Assembly (NCBI RefSeq): GCF_000956525.1
Contig: NZ_JYIW01000014.1
Location: forward strand, 1-57,340
Length of the DNA stretch: 57,340 bases
Origin: Microbacterium oxydans
GTDB lineage: Bacteria; Actinomycetota; Actinomycetes; Actinomycetales; Microbacteriaceae
Direction: 5' to 3'
This document shows, piece by piece, positions 36,086 through 57,259 of this stretch. A model generated the notes under the pieces. That model saw nothing but the letters and a program-made list of their open reading frames with translations, ran no database searches and had not been told where the DNA came from. The first letter of the stretch is position 1, and each line of letters starts with the position of its first letter. A program made the position numbers and the translations under genes.

Positions 36086-36439
36086 ATGAGCGCATACTTC
36101 GACAGCGAGGCCGACAAGACCTACACGAAGGTCTACAAGCAGCACACCCCCGACATCCTCGCCGCCTTCGCCGCGTTCGACAGCGCGGTGTTCGCCCCTG
36201 ACGAGTCGCGCGCGATCCCGCTGAAGTACCGCGAGCTGATCGCTCTCGCCGTCGGCATCACCACCCAGTGCGTGTACTGCATCGACGCGCACTCGCAGAA
36301 GGCCGTCGCCGCGGGTGCCGACGAGGCCGAGCTCGCCGAGGCCGCCTGGGTCGCGACCGCGATCCGCGCGGGTGGCGGCTTCGCGCACGGACGGCTGGCG
36401 TTCAAGCTCGCCGAGCCCGCGCACGAGCACCAGCACTGA
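36086..36439 (+). CDS. Carboxymuconolactone decarboxylase / AhpD-like protein
   Basis: This 117-residue protein of the CMD/AhpD fold has a redox-type motif CVYCIDAH with Cys62, Cys65 and His69, which in AhpD gives thiol peroxidase or disulfide reductase activity. The preceding segment IPLKYRELIALAVGIT is the usual helix. It is the first gene of a plus-strand operon with nucleoside hydrolase and two flavin-enzyme genes, so it may protect them from peroxide made by uncoupled turnover. That link is inference. Confidence 0.9.
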   Translation: MSAYFDSEADKTYTKVYKQHTPDILAAFAAFDSAVFAPDESRAIPLKYRELIALAVGITTQCVYCIDAHSQKAVAAGADEAELAEAAWVATAIRAGGGFAHGRLAFKLAEPAHEHQH

Positions 36440-36459
36440 TCCGGACGACGGAGACAACC

Positions 36460-37533
36460 ATGCCTTCGCCCGCTTTCGCCCCCGAGAAGCAGTGGATCGT
36501 CGTCGACACCGACACCGGCATCGACGACGCCCACTCGCTGCTGTACCTGCTCGCGCAGCCCGATGTCGAGATCGTCGGCATCACGACGATCTACGGCAAC
36601 TGCTCGGTCGAGGACTCCGCCCGCAACGTGGCCTCCGTGCTCGATGTGGCGGATGCTCCCGGCATCCCGATCTACGGCGGAGCGGATGCGCCGCTCGACG
36701 GCGACGCGTCGATCGCGTGGTTCGTGCACGGCCACGACGGCCTCGGCGACCGCGGTCTGGTGCGCCCTGAGCCGACCCTCGAGGCGGAGTCCGCGGCCGA
36801 CTACCTGGTGCGGATCGCGAACGAGCATCCGGGCCAGATCGACCTGCACCCGCTCGGTCCGCTCACGAACATCGCGCTCGCGCTGGAGCAGGACCCGGAG
36901 CTGTTCCTGAAGTTCCGTTCGGTCGTCATCATGGGCGGCGCAGGGCCGTACCCGGCCGCCGGCACCCCGACAGTGACGGATGCGAACACGCACAACGACC
37001 GCGCTGCGGCAGAGCGGGTGTTCGGCGCCGTCAACCGCGGCAACGTGATCATGGTCGGCGTGAACGTCACCTCCCAGGCGCTGCTCGAAGAGCACGTGAC
37101 AGCGACGCTGCTCGACTCCGAGCTGCCGGCTGCGCAGTTCGCCGGCACGATCCTCGACGCGTACAACGACTTCTACCAGTACAAGTGGGGACGCCGGATC
37201 TCGGCGGCGCACGACGGACTGGCCTCGGTCATCCTGCACCGCCCGGAGATCGTGACCGGCTGGGTCGAGGGACCGGTCGACTTCACGCCGGCCGCCGGCT
37301 CACTCGCGACGCGCGTCGCACTGACCGCCGAGGGGCTGCCGCTGGTGTGGGGCACGCCGGAGGGTCCGTCGACCCGCGCTGTCACGTCGTTCGATCTCAC
37401 GCAGTTCCGTCGGCGGTTCGTGCACGCGCTCGCCTACGGCCGCACCCGGCCGGCACTCGACGCCGCCGGCCGCACGGCGCCGGCGAACTGGCCGAACTCG
37501 GGCGCCGCAGGCGCTGCGGTCGGGCAGGACTGA
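36460..37533 (+). CDS. Inosine/uridine-preferring nucleoside hydrolase
   Basis: This 357-residue N-ribohydrolase splits nucleosides into base and ribose. The calcium-binding motif is VVDTDTGIDDAHS (Asp16, 18, 22, 23). HPLGPLTNIALAL and VIMGGAG follow in family order. The second metal Asp is expected in the C-terminal part (HDGLASVI). It lies 20 bases after the AhpD-like gene and three bases before the ACAD-fold gene. A nucleoside hydrolase in a monooxygenase operon suggests that the substrate carries a nucleoside part. Confidence 0.93.
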   Translation: MPSPAFAPEKQWIVVDTDTGIDDAHSLLYLLAQPDVEIVGITTIYGNCSVEDSARNVASVLDVADAPGIPIYGGADAPLDGDASIAWFVHGHDGLGDRGLVRPEPTLEAESAADYLVRIANEHPGQIDLHPLGPLTNIALALEQDPELFLKFRSVVIMGGAGPYPAAGTPTVTDANTHNDRAAAERVFGAVNRGNVIMVGVNVTSQALLEEHVTATLLDSELPAAQFAGTILDAYNDFYQYKWGRRISAAHDGLASVILHRPEIVTGWVEGPVDFTPAAGSLATRVALTAEGLPLVWGTPEGPSTRAVTSFDLTQFRRRFVHALAYGRTRPALDAAGRTAPANWPNSGAAGAAVGQD

Positions 37534-37536
37534 AGG

Positions 37537-38844
37537 ATGCCGGAGGATCTGCTCGCGTTCACCTCGGTCGCCGATGCGGGCTACGGCCTGTCGAACGCCG
37601 CCGAGATCGATGCGGTCATCGCCAGGATCGCGGCCGCAGCGCCCGCGCGCGACCACGACGGCGACCCCGACCACGGTCTCAGGGCCGATGTGCGCGAGCT
37701 CGCAGCGCTCGGGCTGACCGCTGCTCGGCTGCCGGTCGCTGTCGGCGGGGCCGGGCTGACGTACCCGCAGCTGGTCGACCTGCAGATCCTCCTGGCTCGC
37801 GCCGACTCGAATGTGACGCAGAGCCTCCGCACCCACTTCACGACCAGCGACCGCGCAGCCAGGGCGATCGCGCGCGGCGAGACCGACGACGCGGCCGAGG
37901 AGATCGCCGCCGGGCGCGTCTACGCCGGCGCGACCACCGAGAGCGGCGCGCACGCGATCGGCACGGTCGGCACGACACTGCGGACGGATGCCGACGGCAT
38001 CCTGCGCCTGAACGGACGCAAGGCCTACGCGACCGGCACCGGCTACGCGGACTGGATCTCGGTGCTCGTCTCCGACGACGACGGCCGCCACCTGGTGGCG
38101 CTCGTGCGGGCGGATGCCGACGGCATCGTGCTGCATGACGACTGGGACGGCGTCGGGCAGCGCCTGACCACCTCCGGCACGGTGGAGTTCACCGACGTCG
38201 ATGTCGACCCGGCGCGCCTCCGCGTCGGCGAGGGCTCGCGCACCGATCGCCTCGGCAACCTCGACGCGGTGCTGCAGCTCACGCATCTCGCGACGCTCGC
38301 GGGCATCGCGCTGCGCACCCGCGACGATGCGATCGCCTGGCTGCGCTCGCGCACCCGCACCTTCAGTCACGCGTCGACCGCGACGCCAGCCGAAGACCCG
38401 CAGCTGCAGGAGCGCATCGGCACGCTCGACGCTCTCGCCCAGGGCGTCGTCGCCTCGGTGCGCGCCGCCGCCGCGCTGCTCGGGGCTGACCTCGAGCGCC
38501 CGCTCGACGAGCAGACCGGCGACGGCCATCTCGCGGTGACCCGAGCCCAGGTGCTCGTGCCGTCGCTCGTGCTGCAGGCGGCGCAGAGCGTGTTCGACCT
38601 CGGCGGCGGCTCGCTCGTCGACGGCCGTCTCGCGCTCGACCGGCACTGGCGCAACGCCCGCACGCTCAGCAACCACAACCCGGTGCACCTGAAGGCCAAG
38701 GCACTCGGTGAGCGCGCCCTGCTCGACGCCGACCTCCCGGAGATCTGGTACGTCGGCACCCGTCGACTCGGCACGGACCGCACTGAGACCAGCACCGAGA
38801 CCAGCACCGAGATCGGCACCGACGCGATGGAGGCAGCCAGATGA
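37537..38844 (+). CDS. ACAD-fold flavin monooxygenase (SfnB/DszC-like)
   Basis: This 435-residue protein belongs to the acyl-CoA-dehydrogenase fold group that uses reduced FMN for oxygenation (DszC, SfnB). It has ARADSNVTQSLRTHFTTS, LNGRKAYATGTGYADWISV, VLHDDWDGVGQRLTTSGTVEF and the C-terminal VFDLGGGSLVDGRLALDRHWRNARTLSNHNPVHLK, which is typical of this branch and differs from true acyl-CoA dehydrogenases. The tail is threonine/glutamate-rich with a small in-frame repeat (TETS twice). It overlaps the LLM gene by ATGA, a common pairing in sulfur scavenging loci. Confidence 0.9.
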   Translation: MPEDLLAFTSVADAGYGLSNAAEIDAVIARIAAAAPARDHDGDPDHGLRADVRELAALGLTAARLPVAVGGAGLTYPQLVDLQILLARADSNVTQSLRTHFTTSDRAARAIARGETDDAAEEIAAGRVYAGATTESGAHAIGTVGTTLRTDADGILRLNGRKAYATGTGYADWISVLVSDDDGRHLVALVRADADGIVLHDDWDGVGQRLTTSGTVEFTDVDVDPARLRVGEGSRTDRLGNLDAVLQLTHLATLAGIALRTRDDAIAWLRSRTRTFSHASTATPAEDPQLQERIGTLDALAQGVVASVRAAAALLGADLERPLDEQTGDGHLAVTRAQVLVPSLVLQAAQSVFDLGGGSLVDGRLALDRHWRNARTLSNHNPVHLKAKALGERALLDADLPEIWYVGTRRLGTDRTETSTETSTEIGTDAMEAAR

Positions 38845-40109
38845 CCCGTCCCCTCGTGCTCGGCGCGAACGTCTACGACTACGGCACGGATGCCGGGGCC
38901 TGGCGTGCGCCGGGCGAAGACCCGCTGCGCGTGTTCGGCGCCGACTTCTGGCGTGATGCCGCTCGCACCGCTGAGGATGCCGGCATCCACGCGATCTTCC
39001 TCGCCGACACCCCCGGTCTCGCGTCGAACCCGGCGATCCGGCCGAGCCGCCTGCTCGAGCCGCTGGCCGCACTGGCGACGGTCGCAGCCGAGACCGAGCA
39101 CCTCGGCATCATCTCGACCGTCTCGTCGAGCTCGAACGATCCGGTCGAGCTGGCCCGTCGGCTGCTCTCGGTCAGCGCGTTCAGCGGCTCGCGTTTCGGG
39201 TGGAACGTGGTCACCGGCATCACCGGCAATGCGATCACCGACTTCGGGTACGACGCGGACCCCGGCCGCGAGGAACGCTACGCGCGCGCCGAGGAGTTCG
39301 TCGAGGCGTACAGCGCCTTCATCGCCGCCGTGCGCGACGACACCGACTACCACCACACCGGCGAGCTGTTCGGTGAACGCATCGCGCGCGCCGACCTCGG
39401 CGTCGACCCGGCGATCCGGTCGCTGCTGCCCGACGTCGCACCGCTCATCGTGCAGGCGGGCGGCTCACCGCGCGGCCGCCAGCTGGCCGCCGAGAGCGCC
39501 GAGGCGGTGTTCGCCGCCGAGACGGTGAAGGAGACCGCGGCGGCCAACGCCGCCGACCTCCGCGACCGCGCCGCCGCGCTCGGCCGCCCTGCACCGCTCG
39601 TGCTCCCCGGCATCCATCTCGTCGTCGGCTCGACCGAGGAGGAGGCCGAGCGCCGCTTCTCCGTGGTCCACGAGCGCAGCCCCGACGGCTACGTGCTCAA
39701 ACGGTTCACGGCGATGTTCGGCATCGACGGCTCGCGCCTCGACCTGGACGCGCCGGCCGAAGACGAGATCACCCGCCTGTCGGGCGACCCCTCCGCCGCG
39801 CCGATCGGCTTCCGCAAGGCGATCGCCGCCTACGGCGCTGCCGGCAACCTCACGGTGCGTGAGCTGCTGCGCTACTTCGCCGGGTTCGGGCACCAGCTGT
39901 TCGTCGGCTCGCCAGAGCGCCTGGTCGACATCATGACGGACTGGGTGGATGCCGGGGCAGCCGACGGCTTCAACCTGCTGTTCGACACCAACCCGTGGGG
40001 GCTGCGCGAGTTCGCCGAGCACGTCACGCCCGTGCTGCGCGCCCGCGGCCTGCTCGTGGAGCGCGGCGACGAACCCTTCACGGCCTGGATGAGAGGTGCA
40101 CGTCGATGA
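38841..40109 (+). CDS. LLM-class FMN-dependent monooxygenase (NtaA/DszA/DmoA type)
   Basis: This 422-residue luciferase-like monooxygenase is in the NtaA/SnaA/DszA branch. It starts LVLGANVYDYGTDAGAWR, has HAIFLADTP, STVSSSSNDPVELARRLLSVSAFSGSRFGWNVVT and PLIVQAGGSPRGRQLAAE, all features of this branch. Members cleave C-S or C-N bonds with FMNH2 and O2 (dimethyl sulfide, dibenzothiophene sulfone, nitrilotriacetate). It is coupled at both ends to the ACAD-fold gene and to a shorter LLM-like gene. Confidence 0.92.
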   Translation: MTRPLVLGANVYDYGTDAGAWRAPGEDPLRVFGADFWRDAARTAEDAGIHAIFLADTPGLASNPAIRPSRLLEPLAALATVAAETEHLGIISTVSSSSNDPVELARRLLSVSAFSGSRFGWNVVTGITGNAITDFGYDADPGREERYARAEEFVEAYSAFIAAVRDDTDYHHTGELFGERIARADLGVDPAIRSLLPDVAPLIVQAGGSPRGRQLAAESAEAVFAAETVKETAAANAADLRDRAAALGRPAPLVLPGIHLVVGSTEEEAERRFSVVHERSPDGYVLKRFTAMFGIDGSRLDLDAPAEDEITRLSGDPSAAPIGFRKAIAAYGAAGNLTVRELLRYFAGFGHQLFVGSPERLVDIMTDWVDAGAADGFNLLFDTNPWGLREFAEHVTPVLRARGLLVERGDEPFTAWMRGARR

Positions 40110-40801
40110 CCCGGATCCTGCGCGTCGACGACGCCACGCTCGCTGCCTTCGCGGTGCGCTCCGGCGCGGGGCGCGACTCGCGCGCTGCACTCGGCGCCGA
40201 GCTGGATGCGGCCGCCGACGTGCTGCTGCTCGGCGACATCGACGGGGTCTCCCCCGACCGCACCGCAGCGGCAGGTGCGCTGCTCGCGGTGACCACACGG
40301 GTCGTCGTGGTGCCGATCATCGGCGCGCGGCAGCATCCGATCAACCTGGCTCGGAACGTCGCGACCCTGTCGAACCTGCACGCGCGGCGCATCGGGCTCG
40401 CCGGCGCTGACGCATCGGCGCTCGCCCTGATCGCTCGACTGTTCGAGTCGTGGCCGCTCGACGCGATCGTCGGGGACGCCGATGCCGGCGTGTACGTGGA
40501 CGACGCCCGCATCGTGCGGATCGCCGACCCCGTGCACCCCTCGATCGGCGGACCGATCACGGTGCCCGTCGACCTTGCGGACAAGTCGGTGACGGTGCTG
40601 CTCGCTGCATCCGGTGCCGTGGGGCCGGGCATCGACGTCGTGCTCGATGCGAGCGCGGTGCCGGTGTGGGGCGGTGGTGCCGTCGAGGGCGGCGGCGTCG
40701 CGTCTGCCGGGGCGCGCGCTGCGTTCGGGCTCGGCGCATCCGTGCCCTTCGCGGCGGGCTCCCCCGCGTTCGCCGGCGCTGGCCGCCTCGACCAGGTCTG
40801 A
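40106..40801 (+). CDS. Short LLM-like domain protein
   Basis: This 231-residue protein looks like a partial luciferase-like domain. VVVVPIIGARQHPINLARNVATLSNLHARRIGLA corresponds to the strand-helix-strand region where full enzymes have PVELARRLxxLxxLSGGRxxWN. It lacks the rest of the barrel. Its closest visible relative is the C-terminal part of the fusion protein at 42186-44228 (matching SWPLDAI / SWPLESI and the IRRINADGAYP region). It begins within the stop of the LLM gene. Likely a partner or regulatory subunit rather than an enzyme. The function is unknown. Confidence 0.75.
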   Translation: MTRILRVDDATLAAFAVRSGAGRDSRAALGAELDAAADVLLLGDIDGVSPDRTAAAGALLAVTTRVVVVPIIGARQHPINLARNVATLSNLHARRIGLAGADASALALIARLFESWPLDAIVGDADAGVYVDDARIVRIADPVHPSIGGPITVPVDLADKSVTVLLAASGAVGPGIDVVLDASAVPVWGGGAVEGGGVASAGARAAFGLGASVPFAAGSPAFAGAGRLDQV

Positions 40802-40811
40802 CGCGGCGGCG

Positions 40812-40919
40812 CTTCGACAGGCTCAGCGACCCAGGGGTGCGGTCCCTGAGCCGCACCTGGGTCCCCGCGCCGCCACCTGGGTCCCTGAGCCGCACCCTGG
40901 GTCCCTGAGCCTGTCGAAG
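40812..40919. repeat. Inverted CTTCGACAGGCTCAG pair, probable two-way terminator
   Basis: One core (40812-40826) and its inverted copy (40905-40919) bracket 78 bases of GGGTCCCTGAGCCGCAC-type partial repeats, between two convergent operons. The pair can form a long stem, so it probably stops transcription from both sides. Confidence 0.75.
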
Positions 40920-40935
40920 GGCCCGCCACCCCGGA

Positions 40936-42189
40936 TCAGGGTCGGCGGAAACGCTCCAGGATGCCGCCCTGGCCGTACTCCCGGCGGAAGATGCCGCGGC
41001 GCTGCAGCTCTGGCACGACCTGGTCGACGAAGTCGGTCAGCCCCGAGGGGAACAGGTCGAGCATGATGTTGAAGCCGTCGGCGGAGCCGCTGCGGAACCA
41101 GGCCTCCATGGTGTCGGCGATCTGCTCCGGCGTGCCGGCGAGGAACCGCTGGCCGTAACCGCCGAAGTCGCGCAGCAGGCGTCGCACGGTCGGGCGCTCC
41201 GCGCGGATCCGCTCGACGAGCACGCGCCGGTAGGCGGTCGACCATCCGGCATCCTGCTGTTCCGCGTCGAGCAGGAGCTGCTCGGGCACCTGCTGGTCGA
41301 GGTCGAGGCCCGAGAAGTCCGCACCGAGCGCCTTCGACAGTTCGTTCAGGCTGTAGGTCGCCGGTGCGAGGTGCTCCCAGTGGTCGAAGCGGTCCCAGGC
41401 TTCCTGCTCGGTGCTGCCGATCACGACGGCGAGCCCGGGGAACACCCGGACATCGTCGGCCGAGCGTCCGGCGTCGACCGCATAGCCGCGGATCTTCTGC
41501 CGGTGCTCCGCGGCCGATGCCGGGTCGTGGTCGACCGAGTAGACGCCGTCGGCGACGAGCCCGGCCAGACGCCAGCCCGGCTCCGATCCGCCGGCCTGCA
41601 CGATCGCCGGACGGTCCGCCACGAGACGTTCCATCTCGAGGCCCGCGCGCACCGAGAACGAGCCGTCGTGCTCGACCACGTCGGCGGTGCCTGCGGTCTC
41701 CCACAGGCGCTTGACGACGGTGACGAACTCCTCGGCGCGGGCGTAGCGCACCGCGCGCTCTGGCAGCTCCGAGATGCCGAAGTTGCGGACGGCCTCCGGA
41801 TCCCAGCTGGTCACGGCGTTCCAGGCGAAGCGTCCGCCGGTCGCGGTGTGCAGCGCCCACAGGCGACGGGCCAGCTCCACCGGCTCGTTCAGCGTGGTCG
41901 AGGCCGTCGCGACGAAGCCGAGATGCTCGGTGGCCGCAGCCATCGCCGGCACGAGCACGCCGGGGTCGAGGTACTGCACCGGGCGGCTGCGCGGATCGGT
42001 GATCGCCGGGCGGTCGGCGAGGAAGATCGCGTCGACCAGGCCGCGCTCCGCGATGCGGGCGACCTCCTGCCAGTGCGCGAGGTCGACGATCGCGTCCGGG
42101 CGGATGTCGGGCGCGCGCCATGCGGCAGGACGCTGCCCGACGCCGAGCACGTTGATGTTGACCGTGAGCAGTCGCCGGTCGTCGGTCAT
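40936..42189 (-). CDS. LLM-class FMN-dependent monooxygenase (NtaA/DmoA type)
   Basis: This is the second full-length LLM enzyme, 417 residues. The N-terminus LLTVNINVLGVGQRPAAWRAPDI and the segments DAIFLADRPAI, STTLNEPVELARRLWALHTATGGRFAWNAVTSW and PAIVQAGGSEPGWRLAG place it in the NtaA/SnaA branch, different in detail from the one at 38.8 kb. It is coupled (ATGA) to the ACAD-LLM fusion gene upstream, which mirrors the ACAD plus LLM pairing of the opposite operon. Confidence 0.92.
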   Translation of the reverse strand: MTDDRRLLTVNINVLGVGQRPAAWRAPDIRPDAIVDLAHWQEVARIAERGLVDAIFLADRPAITDPRSRPVQYLDPGVLVPAMAAATEHLGFVATASTTLNEPVELARRLWALHTATGGRFAWNAVTSWDPEAVRNFGISELPERAVRYARAEEFVTVVKRLWETAGTADVVEHDGSFSVRAGLEMERLVADRPAIVQAGGSEPGWRLAGLVADGVYSVDHDPASAAEHRQKIRGYAVDAGRSADDVRVFPGLAVVIGSTEQEAWDRFDHWEHLAPATYSLNELSKALGADFSGLDLDQQVPEQLLLDAEQQDAGWSTAYRRVLVERIRAERPTVRRLLRDFGGYGQRFLAGTPEQIADTMEAWFRSGSADGFNIMLDLFPSGLTDFVDQVVPELQRRGIFRREYGQGGILERFRRP

Positions 42190-44228
42190 GATGCCTCCGT
42201 GTCGCTGCCGCGCTCGAAGCGGGCGGATGCTCCAGGCAGCTCGTACAGTGCCGGCACCGGGAGCTGCAGTCGCGCGCGCAGGGTCTGCGGGGTCGTGGTC
42301 GAGGCGCCAGGGAGGGATGCCGCGATCGCGAGGAGTCCGTCGATGTCGGCGACCACGTGGCCTGCGGCGAGGACGTGACCGGCGGCGTCGGCGTACGGCA
42401 GCACCCAGCCGTCGCCGCGCACGAGCAGGTCGACGTAGCGGTGCACGTCGTCGAAGCGTCGCGACGACACCATGACCGGAAGCTGCTGCGGGCTGCTCGG
42501 CACGTTCAACGGTCCGGCCGTCGGATACGCGCCATCGGCGTTGATGCGGCGGATGCGCTCGGTCTGCGCGAAATGCTCCGCTGACGCGTCGGCGGCGATG
42601 CTCTCGAGCGGCCAGCTGCGCAGCAACTGCTGCACGACCCTGATGCGGTCGCGTTCGGCGTCGCTCTCGACGAAACCGTCTTCGGCGGCGCCGTCGTCGA
42701 GCACCCAGGCCGTGCGCCCGCCCGAGAGCTGCTCGAGCGAGGCGATGCGGCGGGCCAGGTTGTACGGGTGCCCGGTGACCGAGAGGTCTGCCGTGCCGAT
42801 CGCGAACCAGGCGGTGGGCAGCCGATGCAGCAGGGTCGCGATCGCGACGGATGCATCGAAGTGGGCACCTGGGCGCTCGTCGAACTGGAACAGTGCGGGC
42901 TCACGGTCGCGGAACGCTGCGGCGACCCGGTCGAGGGAGCGCGGGTCGGCCGTGAGCCTGGCGGCGAGGGCCGGATCGACACGGACCACGGTCAGCGGAC
43001 GGATGGCGTCGGCGATCGCCCGCTCGACGGCGACGGCCCGTTCTCCTGGCTCGGCGATCCGATCGAGGGCGTACAGCTCGCGGTCGGCGATCGCGCGAAG
43101 CCGGTGCAGCACCGGGTTGTGCGTCGACAGCGTCTGCGCATTGCGCCAGAAGCGGTCGAGCCGCAGGCTGCTCCGCAGGTCGGCGGCCTCGGCGTTGTCA
43201 TCGAGGAACGAGGGCAACGTCATCAGCCGGTCGGCGGCCTCGATGGTCTGCTCCACGATCACGGCCTGTGCCTGGAACACGGCGTTGACCGCGTCGTCGG
43301 CGAGCGCGGCGGCATCCGCATCTCCCGCGATGATCGCCTGGTGCGCGATCTCGTTCAGGCGCCCGATCCGGCCGAGCGAGGCATGCGACGACGCGGCGAG
43401 CGCACTGATGCGGCCGTACCCTTCGAGCACCAGGATCGGCGAGCCGCCGTGGGCCCGGTCGATGCGGGCGACGAGGTCGGCGGCGGCGGCGCGCGTAGCC
43501 TCGCCGATGCCGACGAGCACCGCGAGCAGGATCAGCTGCTGCCAGCCGGGAGTGCCGAGGTGCTGCGTGTCGAAGGGTGCGACATCGGCCGGGTCGACCG
43601 GGGCCCCGTCGAGCACGGTCGTGCCGCTCGCGGTGGCGCGCTGCCCGAAACCGGTCCAGTCGTCGAGCAGGGTCACACCGGGCGCGGTCGTGCGCAGCGC
43701 CGCGATCACGAGCTCGCCCGCATCGTCGACCGCGCTGTACTCGAGCCAGTCGGCGTAGCGGCTGCCCGTGGAGTAGAACTTGCGGCCGGTCAGCGTGGGC
43801 GATCCGCTCTCGGTCGAGAGGCGCGTGGTGAAGACGCTCGGACCCGATCCGTCTGCCTCGGTCCATCCGCCGCCGATGATCTCGCCTGCCGCGACCCGGG
43901 CGATCCAGCGGTCGCGCAGCGGACCGGTCGGGGCCTTCACGTGCCGCTCGGTGGCGAGCACATGGGTGCGCCAGCTCTGCGCGAGGTTGGAGTCGGCCGC
44001 GGCGATCGCGACGATCGCGTCGAGCAGGTCGAGCACATCGCCACCGAGTCCGCCCTCGGCGACCGGCACCCTGATGCGACCGAAACCGGCCGCGGCGAGA
44101 CGGGTGAAGAAGCTCTTCGGGAGCTCGGAGGCATCGGCGATGCTCGCCTGACGGATCTGGTCGAGGAGCTCGGGGATGCCGGAAGTTCTCCGCGCCCAAT
44201 CGAGGGAGCCGAACGGACGGGAGGTCAT
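42186..44228 (-). CDS. Fusion of ACAD-fold monooxygenase and short LLM-like domain
   Basis: This 680-residue protein has two parts. Residues ~1-395 are a SfnB/DszC-like ACAD-fold enzyme (IAAADSNLAQSWRTHVLATERHV, LTGRKFYSTGSRYADWLEYSA, LLDDWTGFGQRATASGT, LDRFWRNAQTLSTHNPVLH). Residues ~420-680 are a partial LLM-like domain (HPYNLARRIASLEQLSGGRTAW, LLRSWPLESIAADA). The two parts correspond to the separate genes at 37537-38844 and 40106-40801. The start at 44228 is supported by a -10 box six bases away. The fusion argues that the two components work in one complex. Confidence 0.88.
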   Translation of the reverse strand: MTSRPFGSLDWARRTSGIPELLDQIRQASIADASELPKSFFTRLAAAGFGRIRVPVAEGGLGGDVLDLLDAIVAIAAADSNLAQSWRTHVLATERHVKAPTGPLRDRWIARVAAGEIIGGGWTEADGSGPSVFTTRLSTESGSPTLTGRKFYSTGSRYADWLEYSAVDDAGELVIAALRTTAPGVTLLDDWTGFGQRATASGTTVLDGAPVDPADVAPFDTQHLGTPGWQQLILLAVLVGIGEATRAAAADLVARIDRAHGGSPILVLEGYGRISALAASSHASLGRIGRLNEIAHQAIIAGDADAAALADDAVNAVFQAQAVIVEQTIEAADRLMTLPSFLDDNAEAADLRSSLRLDRFWRNAQTLSTHNPVLHRLRAIADRELYALDRIAEPGERAVAVERAIADAIRPLTVVRVDPALAARLTADPRSLDRVAAAFRDREPALFQFDERPGAHFDASVAIATLLHRLPTAWFAIGTADLSVTGHPYNLARRIASLEQLSGGRTAWVLDDGAAEDGFVESDAERDRIRVVQQLLRSWPLESIAADASAEHFAQTERIRRINADGAYPTAGPLNVPSSPQQLPVMVSSRRFDDVHRYVDLLVRGDGWVLPYADAAGHVLAAGHVVADIDGLLAIAASLPGASTTTPQTLRARLQLPVPALYELPGASARFERGSDTEAS

Positions 44229-44234
44229 GACTTC

Positions 44235-44240
44235 AGCGTA
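44235..44240 (-). promoter_or_regulatory. -10 box for the leaderless fusion gene
   Basis: On the minus strand TACGCT is followed by six bases and the ATG at 44228. No ribosome-binding site precedes it. Confidence 0.5.
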
Positions 44241-44372
44241 GCCAGCGACACTCGGTGCGGGCGTCCATGTGAACGCGCATGACGGTGCCGGCGGATGCTG
44301 TTCGGTACAGTCGGAGCTTCCGCACCCGATCCGCGCGGACCCGCACTGCGCGCGTCCGCGGCGAGGAGAATC

Positions 44373-44837: not shown

Positions 44838-44846
44838 CGCGGGGCT

Positions 44847-45288: not shown

Positions 45289-45314
45289 CATCCGAACGCT
45301 GCGACCGGAACCGC

Positions 45315-47992: not shown

Positions 47993-47999
47993 CACCACC

Positions 48000-50078: not shown

Positions 50079-51446
50079 ATGAGCAGCATCACCCTCCACC
50101 GCGCGCGCACGGTGCTCCCCGTCGCCACCCCGCCGATCGCCGACGGCGCCGTCGCCGTGCGCGACGGCCGCATCGTGGCCGTCGGCACGCACGACGACCT
50201 GACCGCCGAGCTCGGCACGGCCGTCGGCGAGCGCCATGAGTGGGACGGCACCCTCACCCCGGGGCTCGTGAACGCGCACACCCACCTGCAGTACACCGAC
50301 ATGGCAGCGGTCGGCCGTGGCTCGTACCCGAGCTTCGAGACGTGGGCGCTGGCCTTCGAGCAGGGATACCGCGTCGAGCACGACTGGGCGGCGTCGGCAG
50401 CCGAGGGCGCTCGACAGTCGATCGAGGGCGGCACCACCGCCGTCGCCGAGATCGTCACCGACCCTGCAGCCGGCAGCGCGGTGCACGATGCGGGCCTGCA
50501 CGGCATCGTGTTCTGGGAGGTGTTCGGCTTCAAACGCGCCGGCTGGGAGGTCGACGGTCGCGAGCGCGTGCTCGCCCAGCTCGACGCGCTGCCGTCGCCG
50601 CCGGCGACCGGCCTGTCGCCGCACGCGATCTACTCGCTCGACACCGACGTGTTCCGATCGCTGCAGCAGCTCGCCGAGGAACAGGGCGTCCGCCTGCACA
50701 TCCACGCGGCCGAGTCGGCATCCGAAGACGAGTTCGCGCGCTTCGGCACCGGCCCGCTCGCCGACCGGTGGCGCGGGCTCGGGCACTCCGACATGCAGCT
50801 GCTCTCGGCAGGCGGCTCCGGCAGCGGGGTGGTGCACTACCTCGACACGGTCGGCGTGCTCACTCCGCACTCGCACCTCGCGCACGGCATCTACGTCGAC
50901 GCCGACGACCGCGCACTGTTGCGCGAACGCGGCGTCTCGGTGGCGCTGTGCCCGCGGTCGAACGCCGTGATCGGGCTCGACGCACCGCCGATCGCCGCGT
51001 ACCTGCGCGAGGGCAACCCGATCGGCGTCGGCACCGATTCGCTGTCGTCGTCTCCCTCGTTGCATGTGCTCGACGACGTCGCCGAGCTGCACCGCCTCGC
51101 CCAGGTCCAGGGCTACACCGGCGACGACCTGCACGCCCGGCTGCTGCACGCGGCCACGGCCGGCGGCGCTCGCGCGCTCGGACTCGGTCTCGGCAGCGGC
51201 CCCGCGCCGAGCGGATTCCTGGCAGCAGACGCGCGCGCCGACCTCGCGGTGTTCGACGTCGCATCGACCAGCCCCCGCGACGCGTTGGCTGAGCTCGTCG
51301 AGAGCGCCCCTGCGGCGGTCGCGACCATCGTCGACGGACGCACGCTGTGGACCGCCGCCCCTTCGACAGGCTCAGGGAACCAGGGCGCAGGCTCAGGGAC
51401 CCAGGGCGCAGACTCAGGGACCCGACAGAACGGAACGAACCGATGA
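50079..51446 (+). CDS. Adenine-nucleoside deaminase-like amidohydrolase (MtaD/SsnA type)
   Basis: This 455-residue metal-dependent amidohydrolase is of the COG0402 group. Metal ligands are visible in GLVNAHTHLQYTD, LHIHAAES (with the catalytic Glu) and HLAHGIYVD, and the Asp in GVGTDSLSSSPSL. Relatives deaminate SAH, methylthioadenosine, 5'-deoxyadenosine or aminofutalosine. It follows the SAH-hydrolase homologue by 67 bases that contain a 15-bp tandem repeat (50016-50045). The last ~25 residues are encoded by palindromic repeat DNA. The exact substrate is not readable. Confidence 0.85.
   Translation: MSSITLHRARTVLPVATPPIADGAVAVRDGRIVAVGTHDDLTAELGTAVGERHEWDGTLTPGLVNAHTHLQYTDMAAVGRGSYPSFETWALAFEQGYRVEHDWAASAAEGARQSIEGGTTAVAEIVTDPAAGSAVHDAGLHGIVFWEVFGFKRAGWEVDGRERVLAQLDALPSPPATGLSPHAIYSLDTDVFRSLQQLAEEQGVRLHIHAAESASEDEFARFGTGPLADRWRGLGHSDMQLLSAGGSGSGVVHYLDTVGVLTPHSHLAHGIYVDADDRALLRERGVSVALCPRSNAVIGLDAPPIAAYLREGNPIGVGTDSLSSSPSLHVLDDVAELHRLAQVQGYTGDDLHARLLHAATAGGARALGLGLGSGPAPSGFLAADARADLAVFDVASTSPRDALAELVESAPAAVATIVDGRTLWTAAPSTGSGNQGAGSGTQGADSGTRQNGTNR
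51361..51420 (+). repeat. Palindrome repeat forming the C-terminal codons of the deaminase
   Basis: One exact CTTCGACAGGCTCAG core (51361-51375) is followed by two decayed copies (CAGGCTCAGGGACCCAGGG type). All are read in frame as serine-, glycine- and threonine-rich residues at the end of the amidohydrolase. Confidence 0.85.
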
Positions 51447-52810
51447 CCGAACGACGCCCCCTGCTGTACGGGCTCTACGAGCAGGCGTGCGTCGGCAACG
51501 GCTCCGGCGCCGTGAGCCTGTGGACCCACCCGGCCGACGAACGACTCGGTGCGACCTCGCTGAAGTACTGGCTCGACCTCGGACGACGGGCGGAGGATGC
51601 CGGCTTCGACCTGTTCTTCTTCGGCGACGTGCTCGGCCTGTACGACACCTACCGCGGCGGCGCGGCGACCGCCCTGGAGTGGGGCGTCGAACTGCCGGCG
51701 CACGATCCGCTCATGCACATCCCCGCACTGGCCGCCGTCACCGAACGCATCGCCTTCGGCGCGACCGTGTCGACCACGTACGAGCACCCCTTCGCGCACG
51801 CGCGCCGCTTCAGCACGCTCGACCACCTCACCGCCGGCCGCATCGCCTGGAACATCGTCACCTCGTACCTCCCCGGTGCCGCCGCGAACTTCGGCCTCGA
51901 CGTGATGGCGCACGACAGCCGCTACGACCGGGCAGACGAGTTCCTCGACGTGGTCTACGACCTGTGGGAGCGCAGCTGGGATCCAGGGGCCTTCGTCGGC
52001 AGCAAGGAGCGGCGCCTGTTCGCCGACCCGTCGAAGGTGCACCGCATCGACCACGAGGGCGCGCACTTCGCCGTCGCCGGCCCGCACCTCAGCATCCCCT
52101 CGCCGCAGCGCACGCCGTACCTGATCCAGGCCGGCTGGTCGCCGCGCGGCCGCGAGTTCGCCGCCAGGCACGCCGAGCTCATCTTCGTCGGCGACTCCGA
52201 CCCCCAGGCGATCAGGGCCGGGCTCGCCGGCATCCGCGCCCGGGCAGCCGAGCTCGGCCGCGACCCCGAGCAGATCCGCGCCGTGGTCGGCATGAACCCC
52301 GTGATCGCGCGCACCCGCATCGAAGTGCAGGAGAAGCTCGACGGCTACCAGGCGCACTACAACGCCGACGCCCAGCTCGCCGCATACGCGGGGTGGAGCG
52401 GCATCGACTTCAGCACCTACGCCGACGACGAGCCGATCGCCAAGCAGAACACCACCCACACGCAGACCAAGGAGACGAGGACGGATGCTCCGCCGCTCAC
52501 CGCCGGTGACGTGCGGGCACGCTTCGCCTCGGTCACGGCGTTCGCGGACGACCGGTACATCGGCACGCCGGACGAGGTGGCTGCGAACATCGAGGAGTTC
52601 GTCGACGAGTCCGGGGTCGACGGCTTCCTGCTGCACCAGTTCCTCTCCCCTGGCACGCTCGACGACTTCAGCGAGCTGCTCGCCCCGAAGCTGCGCGAGC
52701 GCGGACTCTTCGGCGGGTTCCCGAACTCGGGCACGCTGCGCTCGCGGTTGCGCACCGACGGGTCGGATGTGCTCGGCGGCGACCACCCCGCCGGCGCTCG
52801 ACGGCGCTGA
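51443..52810 (+). CDS. LLM-class FMN-dependent monooxygenase (NtaA-like)
   Basis: This is the third full-length LLM enzyme, 455 residues. It shows DLFFFGDVLGLYDTY, STTYEHPFAHARRFSTLDHLTAGRIAWNIVTSYLPGAAANFG and PYLIQAGWSPRGREFAA, typical of NtaA/SnaA/DszA members. The hydrophilic stretch around residues 360-385 (lysine/threonine-rich) fits the mobile loop of the family. It is coupled (ATGA) to the deaminase gene, so an adenine-nucleoside step and an oxygenase step are encoded on one mRNA. Confidence 0.92.
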   Translation: MTERRPLLYGLYEQACVGNGSGAVSLWTHPADERLGATSLKYWLDLGRRAEDAGFDLFFFGDVLGLYDTYRGGAATALEWGVELPAHDPLMHIPALAAVTERIAFGATVSTTYEHPFAHARRFSTLDHLTAGRIAWNIVTSYLPGAAANFGLDVMAHDSRYDRADEFLDVVYDLWERSWDPGAFVGSKERRLFADPSKVHRIDHEGAHFAVAGPHLSIPSPQRTPYLIQAGWSPRGREFAARHAELIFVGDSDPQAIRAGLAGIRARAAELGRDPEQIRAVVGMNPVIARTRIEVQEKLDGYQAHYNADAQLAAYAGWSGIDFSTYADDEPIAKQNTTHTQTKETRTDAPPLTAGDVRARFASVTAFADDRYIGTPDEVAANIEEFVDESGVDGFLLHQFLSPGTLDDFSELLAPKLRERGLFGGFPNSGTLRSRLRTDGSDVLGGDHPAGARRR

Positions 52811-53252: not shown

Positions 53253-54494
53253 ATGAGCATCCTCCGAACGCGCCCGTCTCGCGTCGCTCTCTCCGCCTCC
53301 GCCGGACTCGCGACCGTCATCCTCCTCGCCGGCTGCGCCGGTTCGACCGCACCAGCCGAATCCGACGGCGACGGCTTCGAAGGGGTCGAGCTGACGGTCT
53401 GGAACAACATCGACTTCGACCCGTACCAGTCGCTGCAGAAGGAGTACTTCGAGCAGTGCGCCAGCGACCTCGGCATCAAGGTCGACGTGCAGACGCTGTC
53501 CGGCGACTACACCACCAGCCTGCTGCAGGCCGCGAGCTCGAAGTCGCTGCCCGACGTCGCGCTGATGAACACCGACACGCAGCTGCCGCAGCTCGCTGCG
53601 CAGGGCGTGCTCGCCGACCTCGGCGAGCTGGGCCTGACCACCGACGGCCTCGCCGACTCGGTCGCCGACCTCGGCCAGTACGACGGCACGCTCTTCGCCC
53701 TCCCGGTGCAGGTCGAGGACTACTCGGTCTTCTACAACAAGGAGATCTTCGACGCGGCCGGCATCACCGAGCTCCCGACGACCTTCGACGAGCTCATCGC
53801 CGCCGCGAAGGCCACCACGAACGCCGAGCACTACGGCATCGCGCTGCCGGGCATCGCCGGTGACGGCTCGACCTCGTCGTACTTCCTGCCGTTCCTGCTC
53901 AGCGCCGGCGGCGACCCCGCCGAGGTGACGAGCGACGGCGCTGCCGCAGCGATCGACCTCTACAAGACCCTCGTCGCCGACGGCAGCCTCTCGAAGGAGT
54001 TCGTGAACTGGGGCTGGGACGGCATCGACCAGTGGAAGTCCGGCAAGGCGGCCATCACGGTCTCCGGCCCGTGGAACCTCGTCGACACGAGCCTCGGCTT
54101 CGACTACGGCACCTTCCCGATCCCGGCGGCCACCAGCGCCGACACCAGCAGCGTCGGACTCCTCGGCTACGGCTACGGCGTCGCCGTGCAGGCTGACAAG
54201 AAGCGCGAGCAGGCGGCGGCAGCGCTCGTCGAGTGCCGCGCAGCTGAGGAGAACCAGATCGACACCGCCACGAAGGGCGGCTACGTGCCGGCACTGACCT
54301 CGGCGCAGGATGCGTTCGTCTCCGAGGTGCCGGCGGCCGAGGCCTTCGTCACTCCCGTCGAGAACGCCTTCAACCCGGCATCCCTCGGCACCGAGTGGAA
54401 CGCCCTGCAGCAGAAGTACGTCGATGCGCTGCAGAACGCGACCGTCAACGGCGTGAGCGCCGAGGAAGCGTTGAGCAAGGCCGACCAGGGCTGA
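53253..54494 (+). CDS. CUT1 ABC transporter substrate-binding lipoprotein
   Basis: This 413-residue receptor has a lipoprotein signal, with ILLAGC giving the lipidated Cys28. The mature fold is SBP_bac_1 (VELTVWNNIDFDPYQSLQKEYFEQ, VFYNKEIFDAAGI, WKSGKAAITVSGPWNL). Such receptors usually bind sugars or sugar-like compounds. At the end of the thioether/nucleoside island the ligand could be a ribosyl compound, which is speculative. It overlaps the permease start (TGATG). Confidence 0.92.
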   Translation: MSILRTRPSRVALSASAGLATVILLAGCAGSTAPAESDGDGFEGVELTVWNNIDFDPYQSLQKEYFEQCASDLGIKVDVQTLSGDYTTSLLQAASSKSLPDVALMNTDTQLPQLAAQGVLADLGELGLTTDGLADSVADLGQYDGTLFALPVQVEDYSVFYNKEIFDAAGITELPTTFDELIAAAKATTNAEHYGIALPGIAGDGSTSSYFLPFLLSAGGDPAEVTSDGAAAAIDLYKTLVADGSLSKEFVNWGWDGIDQWKSGKAAITVSGPWNLVDTSLGFDYGTFPIPAATSADTSSVGLLGYGYGVAVQADKKREQAAAALVECRAAEENQIDTATKGGYVPALTSAQDAFVSEVPAAEAFVTPVENAFNPASLGTEWNALQQKYVDALQNATVNGVSAEEALSKADQG

Positions 54495-55441
54495 TGACCG
54501 CAGTCACAGCGGCGCCGAAGCGGCCGGAGACCACCGTCTCCGGCCGCTTCGGCCTGACCCTCGGCAGGCGGCGGACCGTTGAGCTGTGGGCGTTTCTCGT
54601 CCCGGCGATCCTGTTCTTCGCCGTCTTCTTCCTGTTCCCACTCGGGTACGGCGTGTTCATGAGCACGACCGACTTCACGACCGGCACCTTCATCACCGGC
54701 GAGGCTCCCTTCGTCGGGTTCCAGAACTTCCTCGACATCTTCCGCGCTGACGCGACCGGCATCGCGATCGTGAACACGCTCACGATCACCGTGGTCGCCG
54801 TCAGCGCCGAGCTCGTGATCGGACTCGCGCTCGCCCTGCTGTTCACCCGGCGATTCCCCGGCAGCCGTTGGCTCCCGGCGCTCATCCTGATCCCGTGGCT
54901 GCTGCCGGCCGTCGTGGTCGCGACGATCTGGAAGTCGCTCCTCGCCGGAGACGGCGCCATCAACGACATCCTCCGCACCCTCGGGTTGCCGAGCACGGCA
55001 TGGCTGGCCGACCCCACGACAGCGCTCGCCTGCGTGATCGTCGTGGCGGTGTGGGCGAGCCTGCCGTACTGGTCGACGATCCTCGCCGCGGCGCTCAAGC
55101 AGGTGCCGGCCGAGCATCTCGAAGCGGCCGCGCTCGACGGCGCCGGTGCCGCCAAGCGGCTCTGGCACATCATCATCCCGAGCATCTGGCCGGTGATCTC
55201 GGTGCTGGTCGTGATGAGCGTCGTGTTCAACCTGCTCATCGTCGACCTCGTGCTCGCACTCACGCAGGGCGGTCCGGCGAACAGCACCATGACGCTCGGC
55301 GTGCTGTCGTACCGGGCGGCGTTCACGACGTTCGAGTTCGGCCAGGCCGGCGCCTACGGGATGCTGCTGCTGGTCATCAGTCTCGGCTTCGCGATCGTCT
55401 ACACCTGGCTGTCAGCGCGGCGGGAGCGTGCTGAGCGATGA
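54494..55441 (+). CDS. CUT1 ABC transporter permease (MalF type)
   Basis: This 315-residue permease has six transmembrane segments and the coupling loop VPAEHLEAAALDGAGAAKRLWHIIIPSIWP. The start at 54494 is fixed by its one-base overlap with the binding-protein stop. The chain overlaps the MalG-type partner by four bases. Confidence 0.93.
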   Translation: MTAVTAAPKRPETTVSGRFGLTLGRRRTVELWAFLVPAILFFAVFFLFPLGYGVFMSTTDFTTGTFITGEAPFVGFQNFLDIFRADATGIAIVNTLTITVVAVSAELVIGLALALLFTRRFPGSRWLPALILIPWLLPAVVVATIWKSLLAGDGAINDILRTLGLPSTAWLADPTTALACVIVVAVWASLPYWSTILAAALKQVPAEHLEAAALDGAGAAKRLWHIIIPSIWPVISVLVVMSVVFNLLIVDLVLALTQGGPANSTMTLGVLSYRAAFTTFEFGQAGAYGMLLLVISLGFAIVYTWLSARRERAER

Positions 55442-56265
55442 CCGCGCACGCCCGACGCCGCCCGCGCGGCTGGTTCTGGACGATCCTCACCGTCGCGATC
55501 CTGATCGTCTACCTGTTCCCGGTGTACTGGATGGTCTCGGCATCCCTCCAGCCCGGCGCGAACTCGACCGACACCGAATGGTTCCCCTCGAAGGCCGCGA
55601 TCGACGGCTACATCGACGCGTTCGAGAACGGCGGCCTCGACGGGTTGCGGGTCAGCCTCATCACGGCGTTCGGCTCGGTGCTGCTCACGCTGATCGTGGC
55701 CGTGCCGGCCGCGTACGCGCTGAGCCGGCTGCGCTCCAGGGCCGTGAGCCTCGGACTCGTGCTCCTGCTGCTGGCGCAGATGATCCCGAGCATCGTGCTC
55801 GCGAACTCGTTCTACGCGATGTTCAACACCTGGGGTGTGCTCAACAGCTACATCGGGCTCATCCTGGCGAACTCGACCGCCGGCATCCCGTTCGCGATCA
55901 TCCTGCTCCGATCGTTCATGCTGCGCCTCGACACCGAGGTGATCGAGGCGGCGACGCTCGACGGGCTGGGTCCGCTCGGCGCACTGTGGCGCGTCGTCGT
56001 GCCGCTGTCGCGCAACGCGATCATCACGGCAGGCGTCTTCACGTTCCTGTTCTCGTGGGGCGATCTGCTGTTCGGGCTCACGCTGGTCACCAAGACCGAC
56101 ATGTACCCGGTGACGGTGTTCATCTACGCGCTCGCGAACTCGAACCTGAACACCTGGGCCGCGACCATGGCGGCATCCCTGATCGCGAGCCTGCCTGCGC
56201 TCGTGCTGGTGCTCGCCGCGCAGCGGTACGTGAAAGAGGGCGTGATCACCGGCAGCGGGCGGTAG
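55438..56265 (+). CDS. CUT1 ABC transporter permease (MalG type)
   Basis: This 275-residue permease has six transmembrane segments and the coupling loop DTEVIEAATLDGLGPLGALWRVVVPLSRNAI. It completes the importer with the two genes before it. No ATPase follows. As with cebEFG, a shared MsiK-type ATPase encoded elsewhere is expected. It ends 40 bases from the convergent ATP-grasp gene. Confidence 0.93.
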   Translation: MTAHARRRPRGWFWTILTVAILIVYLFPVYWMVSASLQPGANSTDTEWFPSKAAIDGYIDAFENGGLDGLRVSLITAFGSVLLTLIVAVPAAYALSRLRSRAVSLGLVLLLLAQMIPSIVLANSFYAMFNTWGVLNSYIGLILANSTAGIPFAIILLRSFMLRLDTEVIEAATLDGLGPLGALWRVVVPLSRNAIITAGVFTFLFSWGDLLFGLTLVTKTDMYPVTVFIYALANSNLNTWAATMAASLIASLPALVLVLAAQRYVKEGVITGSGR

Positions 56266-56305
56266 GCGGGCTGGGCCGGCGGATGCAGGGCGCCGTGCCG
56301 CAGGC

Positions 56306-57259
56306 TCAGACCGCGACCGACTCCGCCTCGCGCGCCAGCAGGCCGCCGAGGTAGCGGGCGATCGTGCCAGGACCCGAAACCGCGGCCCCCGCCTCGACGT
56401 CGGGGTTGTAGTTCGTGTTCGTGTTGACGTCATAGGTGACCAGTCGGCCGTCGACGGTCTCGATGAACTCGATGCCCGCGACCGTGATTCCCGCATCCTG
56501 CAGGAACGAGCGGTACTGCTGGACGAGCGGATGCTGCGCCGTGATCTCCGCACGGATGCGGAACAGCGGCTCCGGCTCGACGCCGTCAGCGCCCGGCAGC
56601 GCGCACGCCTCGGCCGGGCACAGCTCGAAGCTGCCTGCGCTGGTGTCGACCCGCACCGCGTAGACGAACTCGCCGCCGGCGAACTCGACGCGCGTGACGA
56701 ACGGTGCCGCCGCGAACAGGTTCTCCTGCAGCAGGGTGATGCCGTCTGGCGAGGCCTCGAACTCGGGGCCGTCGACCCAGGCGTCGAACTCCTCGTGGCT
56801 GTCGTGACGGCGGACGCCGAGTCCCTTGCCGCCCTGGTTGTGCTTGCTGATGAAGGGGGCGGTGAATTCGCGGGCCCGCTCCTTGAGTGCCGCGGTGCCG
56901 AACACGGCGACGGTGCGGGGCACGACGATGCCGGCGCGCTGCAGCGCCGCATGCTGGGCGGCCTTGCTCACCTCGAGCTCGAGCACCGGGCTGCCGTTCA
57001 CGACCGTGCGACCGGCTGCTTCGAGCCAACGGAGCACGGCGCGGCCGTACTCCTTCGAGTCGCCGTGGTCGCGCGTGTGCGCCGAGGCGCTGAGCCGCGA
57101 CCAGAACACCCCGGCAGGCGGCTCGGCGTTCAGGTCGATCGACCCGTCGGTGAGCAGCCACTCCTGGGCGGGCACGCCCTCAGCGTCGAAGGCTGCGGCG
57201 AACGGCGGGAACCATTCGGCGTTCTCGTGGATCACGTACACGCGGGCATCAGCAGTCAT
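56306..57259 (-). CDS. ATP-grasp ligase, RimK-like
   Basis: This 317-residue ATP-grasp protein shows the ATP-binding FISKHNQGGKGLGVRR region (about residues 153-168) and a metal/ATP C-terminal site VTYDVNTNTNYN. A RimK-like N-terminal domain reads VYVIHENAEWFPPF. Family members link a carboxylate to an amine, for example glutamate or peptide ligases. The start at 57259 is supported by a -10 TAGCGT seven bases upstream. It faces the ABC importer. Its substrate and any link to the importer are unknown. Confidence 0.85.
   Translation of the reverse strand: MTADARVYVIHENAEWFPPFAAAFDAEGVPAQEWLLTDGSIDLNAEPPAGVFWSRLSASAHTRDHGDSKEYGRAVLRWLEAAGRTVVNGSPVLELEVSKAAQHAALQRAGIVVPRTVAVFGTAALKERAREFTAPFISKHNQGGKGLGVRRHDSHEEFDAWVDGPEFEASPDGITLLQENLFAAAPFVTRVEFAGGEFVYAVRVDTSAGSFELCPAEACALPGADGVEPEPLFRIRAEITAQHPLVQQYRSFLQDAGITVAGIEFIETVDGRLVTYDVNTNTNYNPDVEAGAAVSGPGTIARYLGGLLAREAESVAV

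What the first reader, a model, noticed from the sequence alone, without database searches (positions are those of the whole stretch)
36086..57259. Possible undescribed sulfur/nucleoside scavenging island built from flavin monooxygenases and SAH-type enzymes
Seen: five mostly ATGA-coupled operons within 21 kb encode three full LLM enzymes, two DszC/SfnB-like enzymes, one ACAD-LLM fusion, nucleoside hydrolase, SAH-hydrolase homologue, adenine-nucleoside deaminase, MetY and a CUT1 importer. Known: DszA/DmoA-type LLM and DszC/SfnB enzymes release sulfur from organosulfur compounds, MetY fixes sulfide or methanethiol, and MtaD/AhcY act on thioether nucleosides. Inference: the locus harvests sulfur, and perhaps base and ribose, from adenine thioether nucleosides and related organosulfur compounds. 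I know of no described pathway with this combination.
Basis: partly seen in the sequence, partly recalled or inferred. Interest (0 to 1): 0.8.

Follow-up and report, generated by a model that had tools for sequence, protein, structure and literature searches.

The report
Nucleoside-breakdown cluster with a histidine-less adenosylhomocysteinase
This stretch of a Microbacterium-type genome joins two gene sets that share one nucleoside hydrolase gene; one set carries a relative of adenosylhomocysteinase in which three conserved active-site histidines are all replaced, so that it likely does new, still untested chemistry on purine nucleosides that the cell is predicted to import.

Summary
The region is not one island but two modules. 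Module A (preA, AhcY-like, deaminase, importer, nucleoside hydrolase) recurs in 15 of 15 other Microbacterium-type genomes fetched with this AhcY-like type; the AhcY-like/deaminase pair recurs in 43 of 44 loci, with three kinds of importer. Module B (SfnB/DszC- and LLM-type flavoenzymes, nucleoside hydrolase, MetY in 3 of 4 genomes) occurs without module A beside it in two genomes and is missing from a close relative, G311. The nucleoside hydrolase here is of module-B ancestry.

The AhcY-like protein is no ordinary SAH hydrolase: in 120 relatives the catalytic His is Val (119) or Thr (1), the gate His Gly (120) and a third His Asn (120), while 3'-oxidation residues and the hypoxanthine-binding Glu/Lys stay; 83 of 84 canonical enzymes keep all three His. 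A degenerate half copy accompanies it.

Likely reading: uptake, deamination and NAD-dependent sugar chemistry of modified purine nucleosides, joined to a separable flavin module that may recover sulfur. Substrate and sulfur use are unproven; no structure model could be run.

The parts
36086..36439 (+). CMD (AhpD/carboxymuconolactone-type) protein, first gene of the NH-SfnB-LLM1 operon; module B
   Evidence: PF02627 E 5e-19; homologue in the same place in G056 and G380
36460..37533 (+). Nucleoside hydrolase (NH) shared by both modules, of module-B ancestry
   Evidence: PF01156 E 9e-64; tree groups it with module B NHs, 98/99
37537..38844 (+). SfnB-like ACAD-fold flavoenzyme; module B
   Evidence: TIGR04022 215 bits, cut-off 431
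38841..40109 (+). LLM1, NtaA/DmoA subfamily; module B
   Evidence: TIGR03860 287 bits, cut-off 279.7
40106..40801 (+). llmS, half-length LLM-like protein; module B
   Evidence: no Pfam hit; matches the C-terminal half of the fusion, 36% over 92 positions, E 1e-11; homologues in G380 and G056
40936..42189 (-). LLM2, NtaA/DmoA subfamily; module B
   Evidence: TIGR03860 378 bits
42186..44231 (-). ACAD (SfnB-like) fused to a degenerate LLM half; module B
   Evidence: TIGR04022 161 bits, TIGR03860 60 bits; full length in 3 of 198 genus genomes and in 2 of 249 family genomes, own included
44373..44837 (+). Half ACAD (C-terminal domain only), divergent from the fusion gene; module B; start approximate
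   Evidence: PF08028 24.9 bits, cut-off 22.7; 48-83% identical stretches in L161, L032, L243, L210
45315..46526 (-). DszC-like ACAD-fold flavoenzyme; module B (not found in the G056 cluster)
   Evidence: NF043015 257 bits, cut-off 850
46520..47899 (-). MetY-like O-acetylhomoserine sulfhydrylase; module B; start approximate
   Evidence: PF01053 E 2e-121; TIGR01326 474 bits, cut-off 495
37571..48040 (.). Stretch without counterpart in G311 between NH and preA (about 10.5 kb)
   Evidence: BLASTN pieces; N-termini compared
48000..48755 (+). preA, degenerate NAD-domain half of an AhcY-type protein, GTG start; module A
   Evidence: no Pfam hit for the longer ORF; hhalign to AhcYL 96.3%, E 1.5e-9; present in 15 of 15 loci
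48752..50011 (+). AhcYL, adenosylhomocysteinase homologue lacking three active-site His; module A
50079..51446 (+). Amidohydrolase, predicted nucleoside deaminase; module A
   Evidence: PF01979 E 1e-32; H67, H69, H209, E212, H269, D320 conserved in at least 97% of 46 rows
51443..52810 (+). LLM3, NtaA/DmoA subfamily; module A, optional
   Evidence: TIGR03860 459 bits; present in 10 of 15 module A loci
53253..54494 (+). Solute-binding protein of a CUT1-type importer; module A
   Evidence: PF13416 E 3e-38
54494..55441 (+). Permease 1 of the importer
   Evidence: PF00528 E 2e-18
55438..56265 (+). Permease 2 of the importer
   Evidence: PF00528 E 9e-14

Best explanation
The region is a merger of two gene modules that also occur apart in related genomes, that share one nucleoside hydrolase gene, and that likely serve to take up and break down modified purine nucleosides. 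Module A is predicted to import an adenine-type nucleoside, deaminate it with the amidohydrolase to a 6-oxopurine (hypoxanthine-type) nucleoside, and pass this to AhcYL with its half partner preA. AhcYL keeps the NAD domain, the Lys/Asp/Asn and Glu linked to 3'-oxidation, the Asp that in the parent enzyme takes the C4' proton, and the Glu/Lys that hold hypoxanthine, but not the histidines that serve the 5' leaving group. I infer that it makes a 3'-keto nucleoside and then expels either the base or a C5' group that needs no acid help (such as a sulfonium or a sulfinate), rather than hydrolysing a plain thioether. The nucleoside hydrolase would split base from sugar. Module B (SfnB/DszC-like and LLM flavoenzymes, with MetY) likely oxidises an organosulfur group of a related riboside and feeds reduced sulfur to MetY. 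Shown: gene content, conservation, separability, NH ancestry, active-site replacement. Inferred: substrates, order of reactions, sulfur release.
For: Subfamily-wide change of the three His with the NAD/ribose residues and the hypoxanthine Glu/Lys kept (residue roles from passages of PMC10978960). Subfamily is one clade, SH-aLRT 100. Deaminase pair in 43 of 44 loci; deaminase metal ligands kept. Among other SAHH loci the hypoxanthine motif HxExK goes with a nearby amidohydrolase (13 of 39, against 2 of 32 for HxTxE; Fisher p 0.0075). NH in the cluster in 15 of 15 module A loci and in 4 of 4 genomes with the fusion. NH of module-B ancestry retained by module A in the window clade, including G311, which lacks the B block. 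preA is a half copy of the NAD domain, fused to AhcYL in many loci of other genera. MetY in the B cluster in 3 of 4 genomes.
Against: No substrate is shown. Importers differ between genera (CUT1, SBP_bac_3, ECF), which may mean different substrates. The fusion is rare (3 of 198; 2 of 249 with own), so the A-B merger rests on one clade. The HxExK-deaminase association is not corrected for kinship or contig ends. NF004005 (adenosylhomocysteinase) is passed by AhcYL (380 against 275 bits). Module A in other genera lacks NH and LLM3 in the lists, so NH is not needed everywhere. No structure model could be made.
Confidence: 0.4

Rival explanations
1. Two unrelated modules lie together by accident: A is purine nucleoside catabolism for nitrogen and carbon, B is an ordinary SfnB/DszC/LLM organosulfur scavenging cluster, and its nucleoside hydrolase is incidental.
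For: A and B occur apart; the merger is seen in one clade only; no recurrent sulfur gene among the annotated neighbours of A in other genera.
Against: NH is in the B cluster in 4 of 4 genomes, two genera; the G364 B cluster has an importer related to that of A (54-61% identity); the A module of this clade uses the B-type NH.
Confidence: 0.25
2. One reading: one sulfur-scavenging pathway in which AhcY hydrolyses adenine thioether nucleosides and the flavin enzymes and MetY recover the sulfur.
For: Gene content; MetY beside the flavoenzymes in 3 of 4 genomes.
Against: Catalytic and gate His replaced in all 120 subfamily proteins; 14 of 15 relatives with module A show no module B in the fetched stretch; G311 lacks it.
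Confidence: 0.12
3. AhcYL is a working SAH or SIH hydrolase of the methyl cycle that manages without the histidines.
For: The genome has no other convincing AhcY (two further NAD-domain partial hits just over the cut-off, at 28.0 and 27.3 bits) and no LuxS; NF004005 is passed.
Against: 154 of 198 genus genomes lack AhcYL at E 1e-60; three PNP_UDP_1 matches, the family of SAH nucleosidase, are present (one has an in-frame TGA); the histidines are lost.
Confidence: 0.06
4. AhcYL is a dead enzyme that serves as a regulator or scaffold for the deaminase or importer.
For: Loss of catalytic His; a half copy as partner.
Against: NAD motif and the Lys/Asp/Asn/Glu set are invariant in 120 of 120, which a dead enzyme would not need.
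Confidence: 0.1

Closest known systems
Deaminase plus HxExK-type SAH/SIH hydrolase route (euryarchaea; passages of PMC10978960)
   Same: deaminase paired with an AhcY-family enzyme that keeps the hypoxanthine-binding Glu/Lys; the same pairing was seen near other HxExK enzymes
   Different: catalytic and gate histidines replaced; half-copy partner; importer and, in Microbacterium-type genomes, NH and often LLM3 in the cassette
AgmF, angustmycin A dehydratase (passages of PMC8599513)
   Same: an SAHH homologue with another reaction: 4'-oxidation of a hexulose nucleoside, then loss of water
   Different: AgmF is proposed to use His56 and His299, the type of residue that AhcYL lacks; AgmF is biosynthetic
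SfnB/SfnG, DszC/DszA and DmoA organosulfur enzymes (family models)
   Same: ACAD-type and LLM-type flavoenzymes side by side, MetY in the cluster
   Different: below the SfnB and DszC equivalog cut-offs; joined to a nucleoside hydrolase; half LLM and half ACAD companions
RcaE riboflavin monooxygenase of Microbacterium maritypicum (passages of PMC12746152)
   Same: an LLM of the same broad family (5w48 matches LLM3 at E 1e-88)
   Different: LLM3 scores higher with LadA (3b9n) and DMS monooxygenase (6ak1)
5'-deoxynucleoside/MTA salvage (DHAP shunt; listing only)
   Same: uses exogenous 5'-deoxynucleosides
   Different: kinase, isomerase and aldolase of that route were not seen here among annotated genes; no AhcY-type step is known to me in it (recalled)

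Membership tests
S-adenosyl/S-inosylhomocysteine hydrolase | AhcY fold family and NAD domain | tested here: met
   PF05221 and PF00670; 3x2e E 2e-82
S-adenosyl/S-inosylhomocysteine hydrolase | catalytic His of the HxTxE/HxExK motif | tested here: not met
   Val in 119 and Thr in 1 of 120; His in 83 of 84 canonical rows
S-adenosyl/S-inosylhomocysteine hydrolase | His-Phe molecular gate | tested here: not met
   His is Gly in 120 of 120; Phe is Val 103, Ala 16, Gly 1
S-adenosyl/S-inosylhomocysteine hydrolase | Asp, Glu, Lys, Asp, Asn set for 3'-oxidation and C4' proton removal | tested here: met
   D123, E147, K178, D182, N183 in 120 of 120
S-inosylhomocysteine-type (hypoxanthine) specificity | Glu and Lys of HxExK | tested here: met
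   E53 and K55 in 120 of 120
TRZ/ATZ-type deaminase (MTA/SAH, 5'-deoxyadenosine, aminofutalosine) | HxH, H, E, H, D metal and catalytic residues (set recalled) | tested here: met
   conserved in at least 97% of 46 rows
TRZ/ATZ-type deaminase (MTA/SAH, 5'-deoxyadenosine, aminofutalosine) | passes an equivalog model for a named substrate | tested here: not met
   best NCBIfam scores about 110 bits against cut-offs of several hundred
Nucleoside hydrolase (IUNH) | Pfam family and DxDxxxDD calcium motif (motif recalled) | tested here: met
   PF01156 216 bits, cut-off 34; motif in 18 of 18
NtaA/DmoA-family LLM monooxygenase | TIGR03860 cut-off | tested here: met
   LLM1 287, LLM2 378, LLM3 459 bits against 279.7; fusion 60 and llmS 21 bits do not pass
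SfnB / DszC | equivalog cut-offs | tested here: not met
   215 and 221 of 431; 257 of 850 bits
Sulfur-starvation organosulfur regulon | induction by sulfate limitation | not testable with these tools
   no expression data

The most novel reading that the evidence does not exclude
AhcYL with its half copy preA is a new NAD-dependent nucleoside enzyme of actinobacteria: it oxidises C3' of a 6-oxopurine nucleoside and then expels the base, or a sulfonium or sulfinate group from C5', without histidine help, so that an enzyme of the methyl cycle has become the core of a widespread nucleoside-scavenging route with interchangeable importers.
Probability: 0.3. Interest if true: 0.8.

Novelty: new variant of a known kind. 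Interest (0 to 1): 0.57.

Why it matters
Members of this subfamily are named adenosylhomocysteinase in public records (those with a name among the best 120 hits, nearly without exception), yet all examined lack the catalytic and gate histidines. If they act on nucleosides in another way, methyl-cycle annotations in these actinobacteria mislead, and a nucleoside route with a degenerate partner subunit and three kinds of importer becomes testable. The shared nucleoside hydrolase suggests that at least one kind of flavin-monooxygenase cluster that looks like organosulfur scavenging handles ribosides.

Tried and rejected
Considered and rejected: canonical SAH hydrolase (active site); AgmF-type dehydratase (its proposed histidines are missing; passages of PMC8599513); riboflavin catabolism (LLM3 scores higher with LadA; the riboflavin-type ECF S component was seen in 3 loci only); methyl-cycle role. 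Led nowhere: ECF S-component literature, aminofutalosine deaminase literature, function of DUF985 cupins, class-wide search (all 32 matches besides the window are 37-42% identical, and the 13 of its loci that entered the tree were canonical), term search in a 5'-deoxyadenosine salvage paper (PMC8102628: none of the terms found). I found no description of this gene combination in searches (no paper; one unrelated paper), nor by term search in an SAHH review (PMC13406329); the library is limited to open licences.

Rows dropped before counts: P0061 (rearranged) from the subfamily set; 10 of 94 other SAHH rows whose translation did not carry the catalytic trio; six rows with stops, and two rows printed there (L154, L157) are out of frame and were not used.
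Full report
WHAT IS THERE. The window is one whole contig of its genome, 69.6% G+C; the best named protein hits of AhcYL are from Microbacterium. The listed genes are real.

MODULE A. I searched AhcYL in 198 genus genomes: 44 matched at E 1e-60, namely the window's own and 15 others at 65-89% identity, and 28 at 45-49%. I fetched 17.5 to 19.9 kb around all 15 close ones and around 5 of the 28. In the 15, preA, AhcYL, amidohydrolase, binding protein and both permeases are present in 15; NH lies within the fetched stretch in 14, and in the fifteenth, G380, about 12 kb from preA, much as in the window; LLM3 is in 10 of 15. In other genera AhcYL and the amidohydrolase are commonly followed by a Cupin_5 gene and an SBP_bac_3/permease/ATPase importer, or, in genomes of g46 and in Rathayibacter tanaceti, combined with an ECF importer. 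NH and LLM3 were not seen at high identity in the loci of other genera.

MODULE B was followed through the ACAD-LLM fusion. In the genus, 37 of 198 genomes matched at E 1e-30, but only 3 over the whole length (G000, G380, G364); the rest match the ACAD part. In a family draw 2 of 249 matched at E 1e-70: the window's own and G056 of another genus. G056 carries CMD-NH-SfnB-LLM1-llmS, facing LLM2 and the fusion, with MetY next to the fusion, no DszC-like gene found, and no AhcYL beside it; its AhcYL lies on another contig. G364 carries NH, LLM2, fusion, SfnB-like, DszC-like and LLM3-like (42%) genes and an importer related to that of module A (54-61%), and no AhcYL at E 1e-60; MetY and llmS were not found in its stretch. 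Microbacterium galbinum (L032, cut at one end) has the merged form.

HOW THEY MEET. In G311 (AhcYL 89% identical) window positions 37571-48040 have no counterpart: NH is followed at once by preA. Shorter stretches before NH, with the reductase, MerR and CMD genes, also lack a counterpart there. The G311 preA begins MPEDLRAF, like the window's SfnB gene (MPEDLLAF), while the window's preA keeps an N-terminus like those of more distant preA proteins. I read this as a deletion in G311 rather than an insertion in the window; this is inference. The NH tree puts the NHs of the window, G380 and G311 with the two module B NHs (98/99), apart from the 13 other module A NHs. So this clade uses a B-derived NH where its relatives use their own. 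The merger is one event in one clade and not evidence of repeated co-occurrence.

AHCYL. In 120 subfamily proteins (the window's and 119 of the best 120 hits, chosen by similarity to the query) the catalytic His of the HxExK motif is Val in 119 and Thr in 1; the gate His is Gly in 120 and its Phe neighbour Val (103), Ala (16) or Gly (1); a third His (human H353, number recalled) is Asn in 120. Asp123, Glu147, Lys178, Asp182, Asn183, Glu53 and Lys55 are invariant. Of 84 usable canonical rows, 83 keep all three His; one, from Rubrobacteraceae (L056), reads PxExK/G/H. The 24 subfamily rows in the tree form one clade, SH-aLRT 100, quick method. By the passages I read of PMC10978960, the first His is catalytic, the second is the molecular gate near O5', and the Lys marks enzymes that prefer hypoxanthine substrates. 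In passages of PMC8599513 the corresponding histidines of AgmF are proposed to help the leaving hydroxyl. AhcYL thus keeps signs of base recognition and 3'-oxidation and loses 5' acid-base help. This is sequence evidence; activity is untested.

preA matches the NAD-domain half of AhcYL (hhalign 96.3%, E 1.5e-9; alignment A3 also holds seven canonical SAHHs) and of canonical SAHH (91.4%, E 9e-7), and the domain fused to the N-terminus of AhcYL in other genera (98.0%, E 2e-13). G069 has two AhcYL copies in tandem instead (L118).

DEAMINASE LINK. Among 75 loci (L036-L110), an amidohydrolase lay within 5 kb in 13 of 39 HxExK and 2 of 32 HxTxE loci; two loci left unclassified by the pattern also had one, the PxExK locus had none, and one locus (L102) is an AhcYL with its amidohydrolase (Fisher p 0.0075). 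Kinship and contig ends were not corrected for.

FUNCTION. I commit to nucleoside breakdown with AhcYL as a changed NAD enzyme acting after deamination, confidence 0.4. Sulfur recovery by module B is plausible from family membership and MetY, but no test here bears on it directly. The genome has no other convincing AhcY (two partial NAD-domain hits at 28.0 and 27.3 bits, cut-off 27), no LuxS, three PNP_UDP_1 matches, and a second NH that is 41% identical.

Noticed in passing
40106-40801, C-terminal part of 42186-44231, 44373-44837, 48000-48755: Each main enzyme type here has a degenerate half copy beside it or fused to it: half LLMs, a half ACAD and a half AhcY (preA). Heteromers in the manner of LuxA/LuxB (recalled) are one reading.
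   Followed up: partly
44841-45249, 40803-40851, 52814-52891: Related short repeats lie between the operons here and in M. galbinum; similar-looking PEPVEG/RFDKLSDP segments sit inside the C-terminal part of several preA proteins.
   Followed up: no
L056:4321-5562: A Rubrobacteraceae SAHH with PxExK/G/H, two of the three His replaced: a possible intermediate between SAHH and AhcYL.
   Followed up: no
L118:8132-10659: Two AhcYL-type genes in tandem (38% and 45% identity to the query) in G069, perhaps a heteromer like AhcYL-preA.
   Followed up: no
L035:12633-13130: A Cupin_5 (DUF985) gene follows the AhcYL-amidohydrolase pair in 12 loci (cluster C9); its function is unknown to me.
   Followed up: partly
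32510-35934: Superoxide dismutase (32510-33367), FprA-like reductase (33672-35030) and a MerR protein with a SoxR-like cysteine cluster (about 35431-35934, motif recalled) stand before module B.
   Followed up: no
30892-32403: A SulP-family transporter with a STAS domain lies near module B; M. galbinum has the homologous DNA beyond the other end of the cluster.
   Followed up: no
56306-57274: A RimK-like ATP-grasp protein (TIGR00768, 47 bits, below cut-off), conserved beside the importer in G380 and M. galbinum.
   Followed up: no
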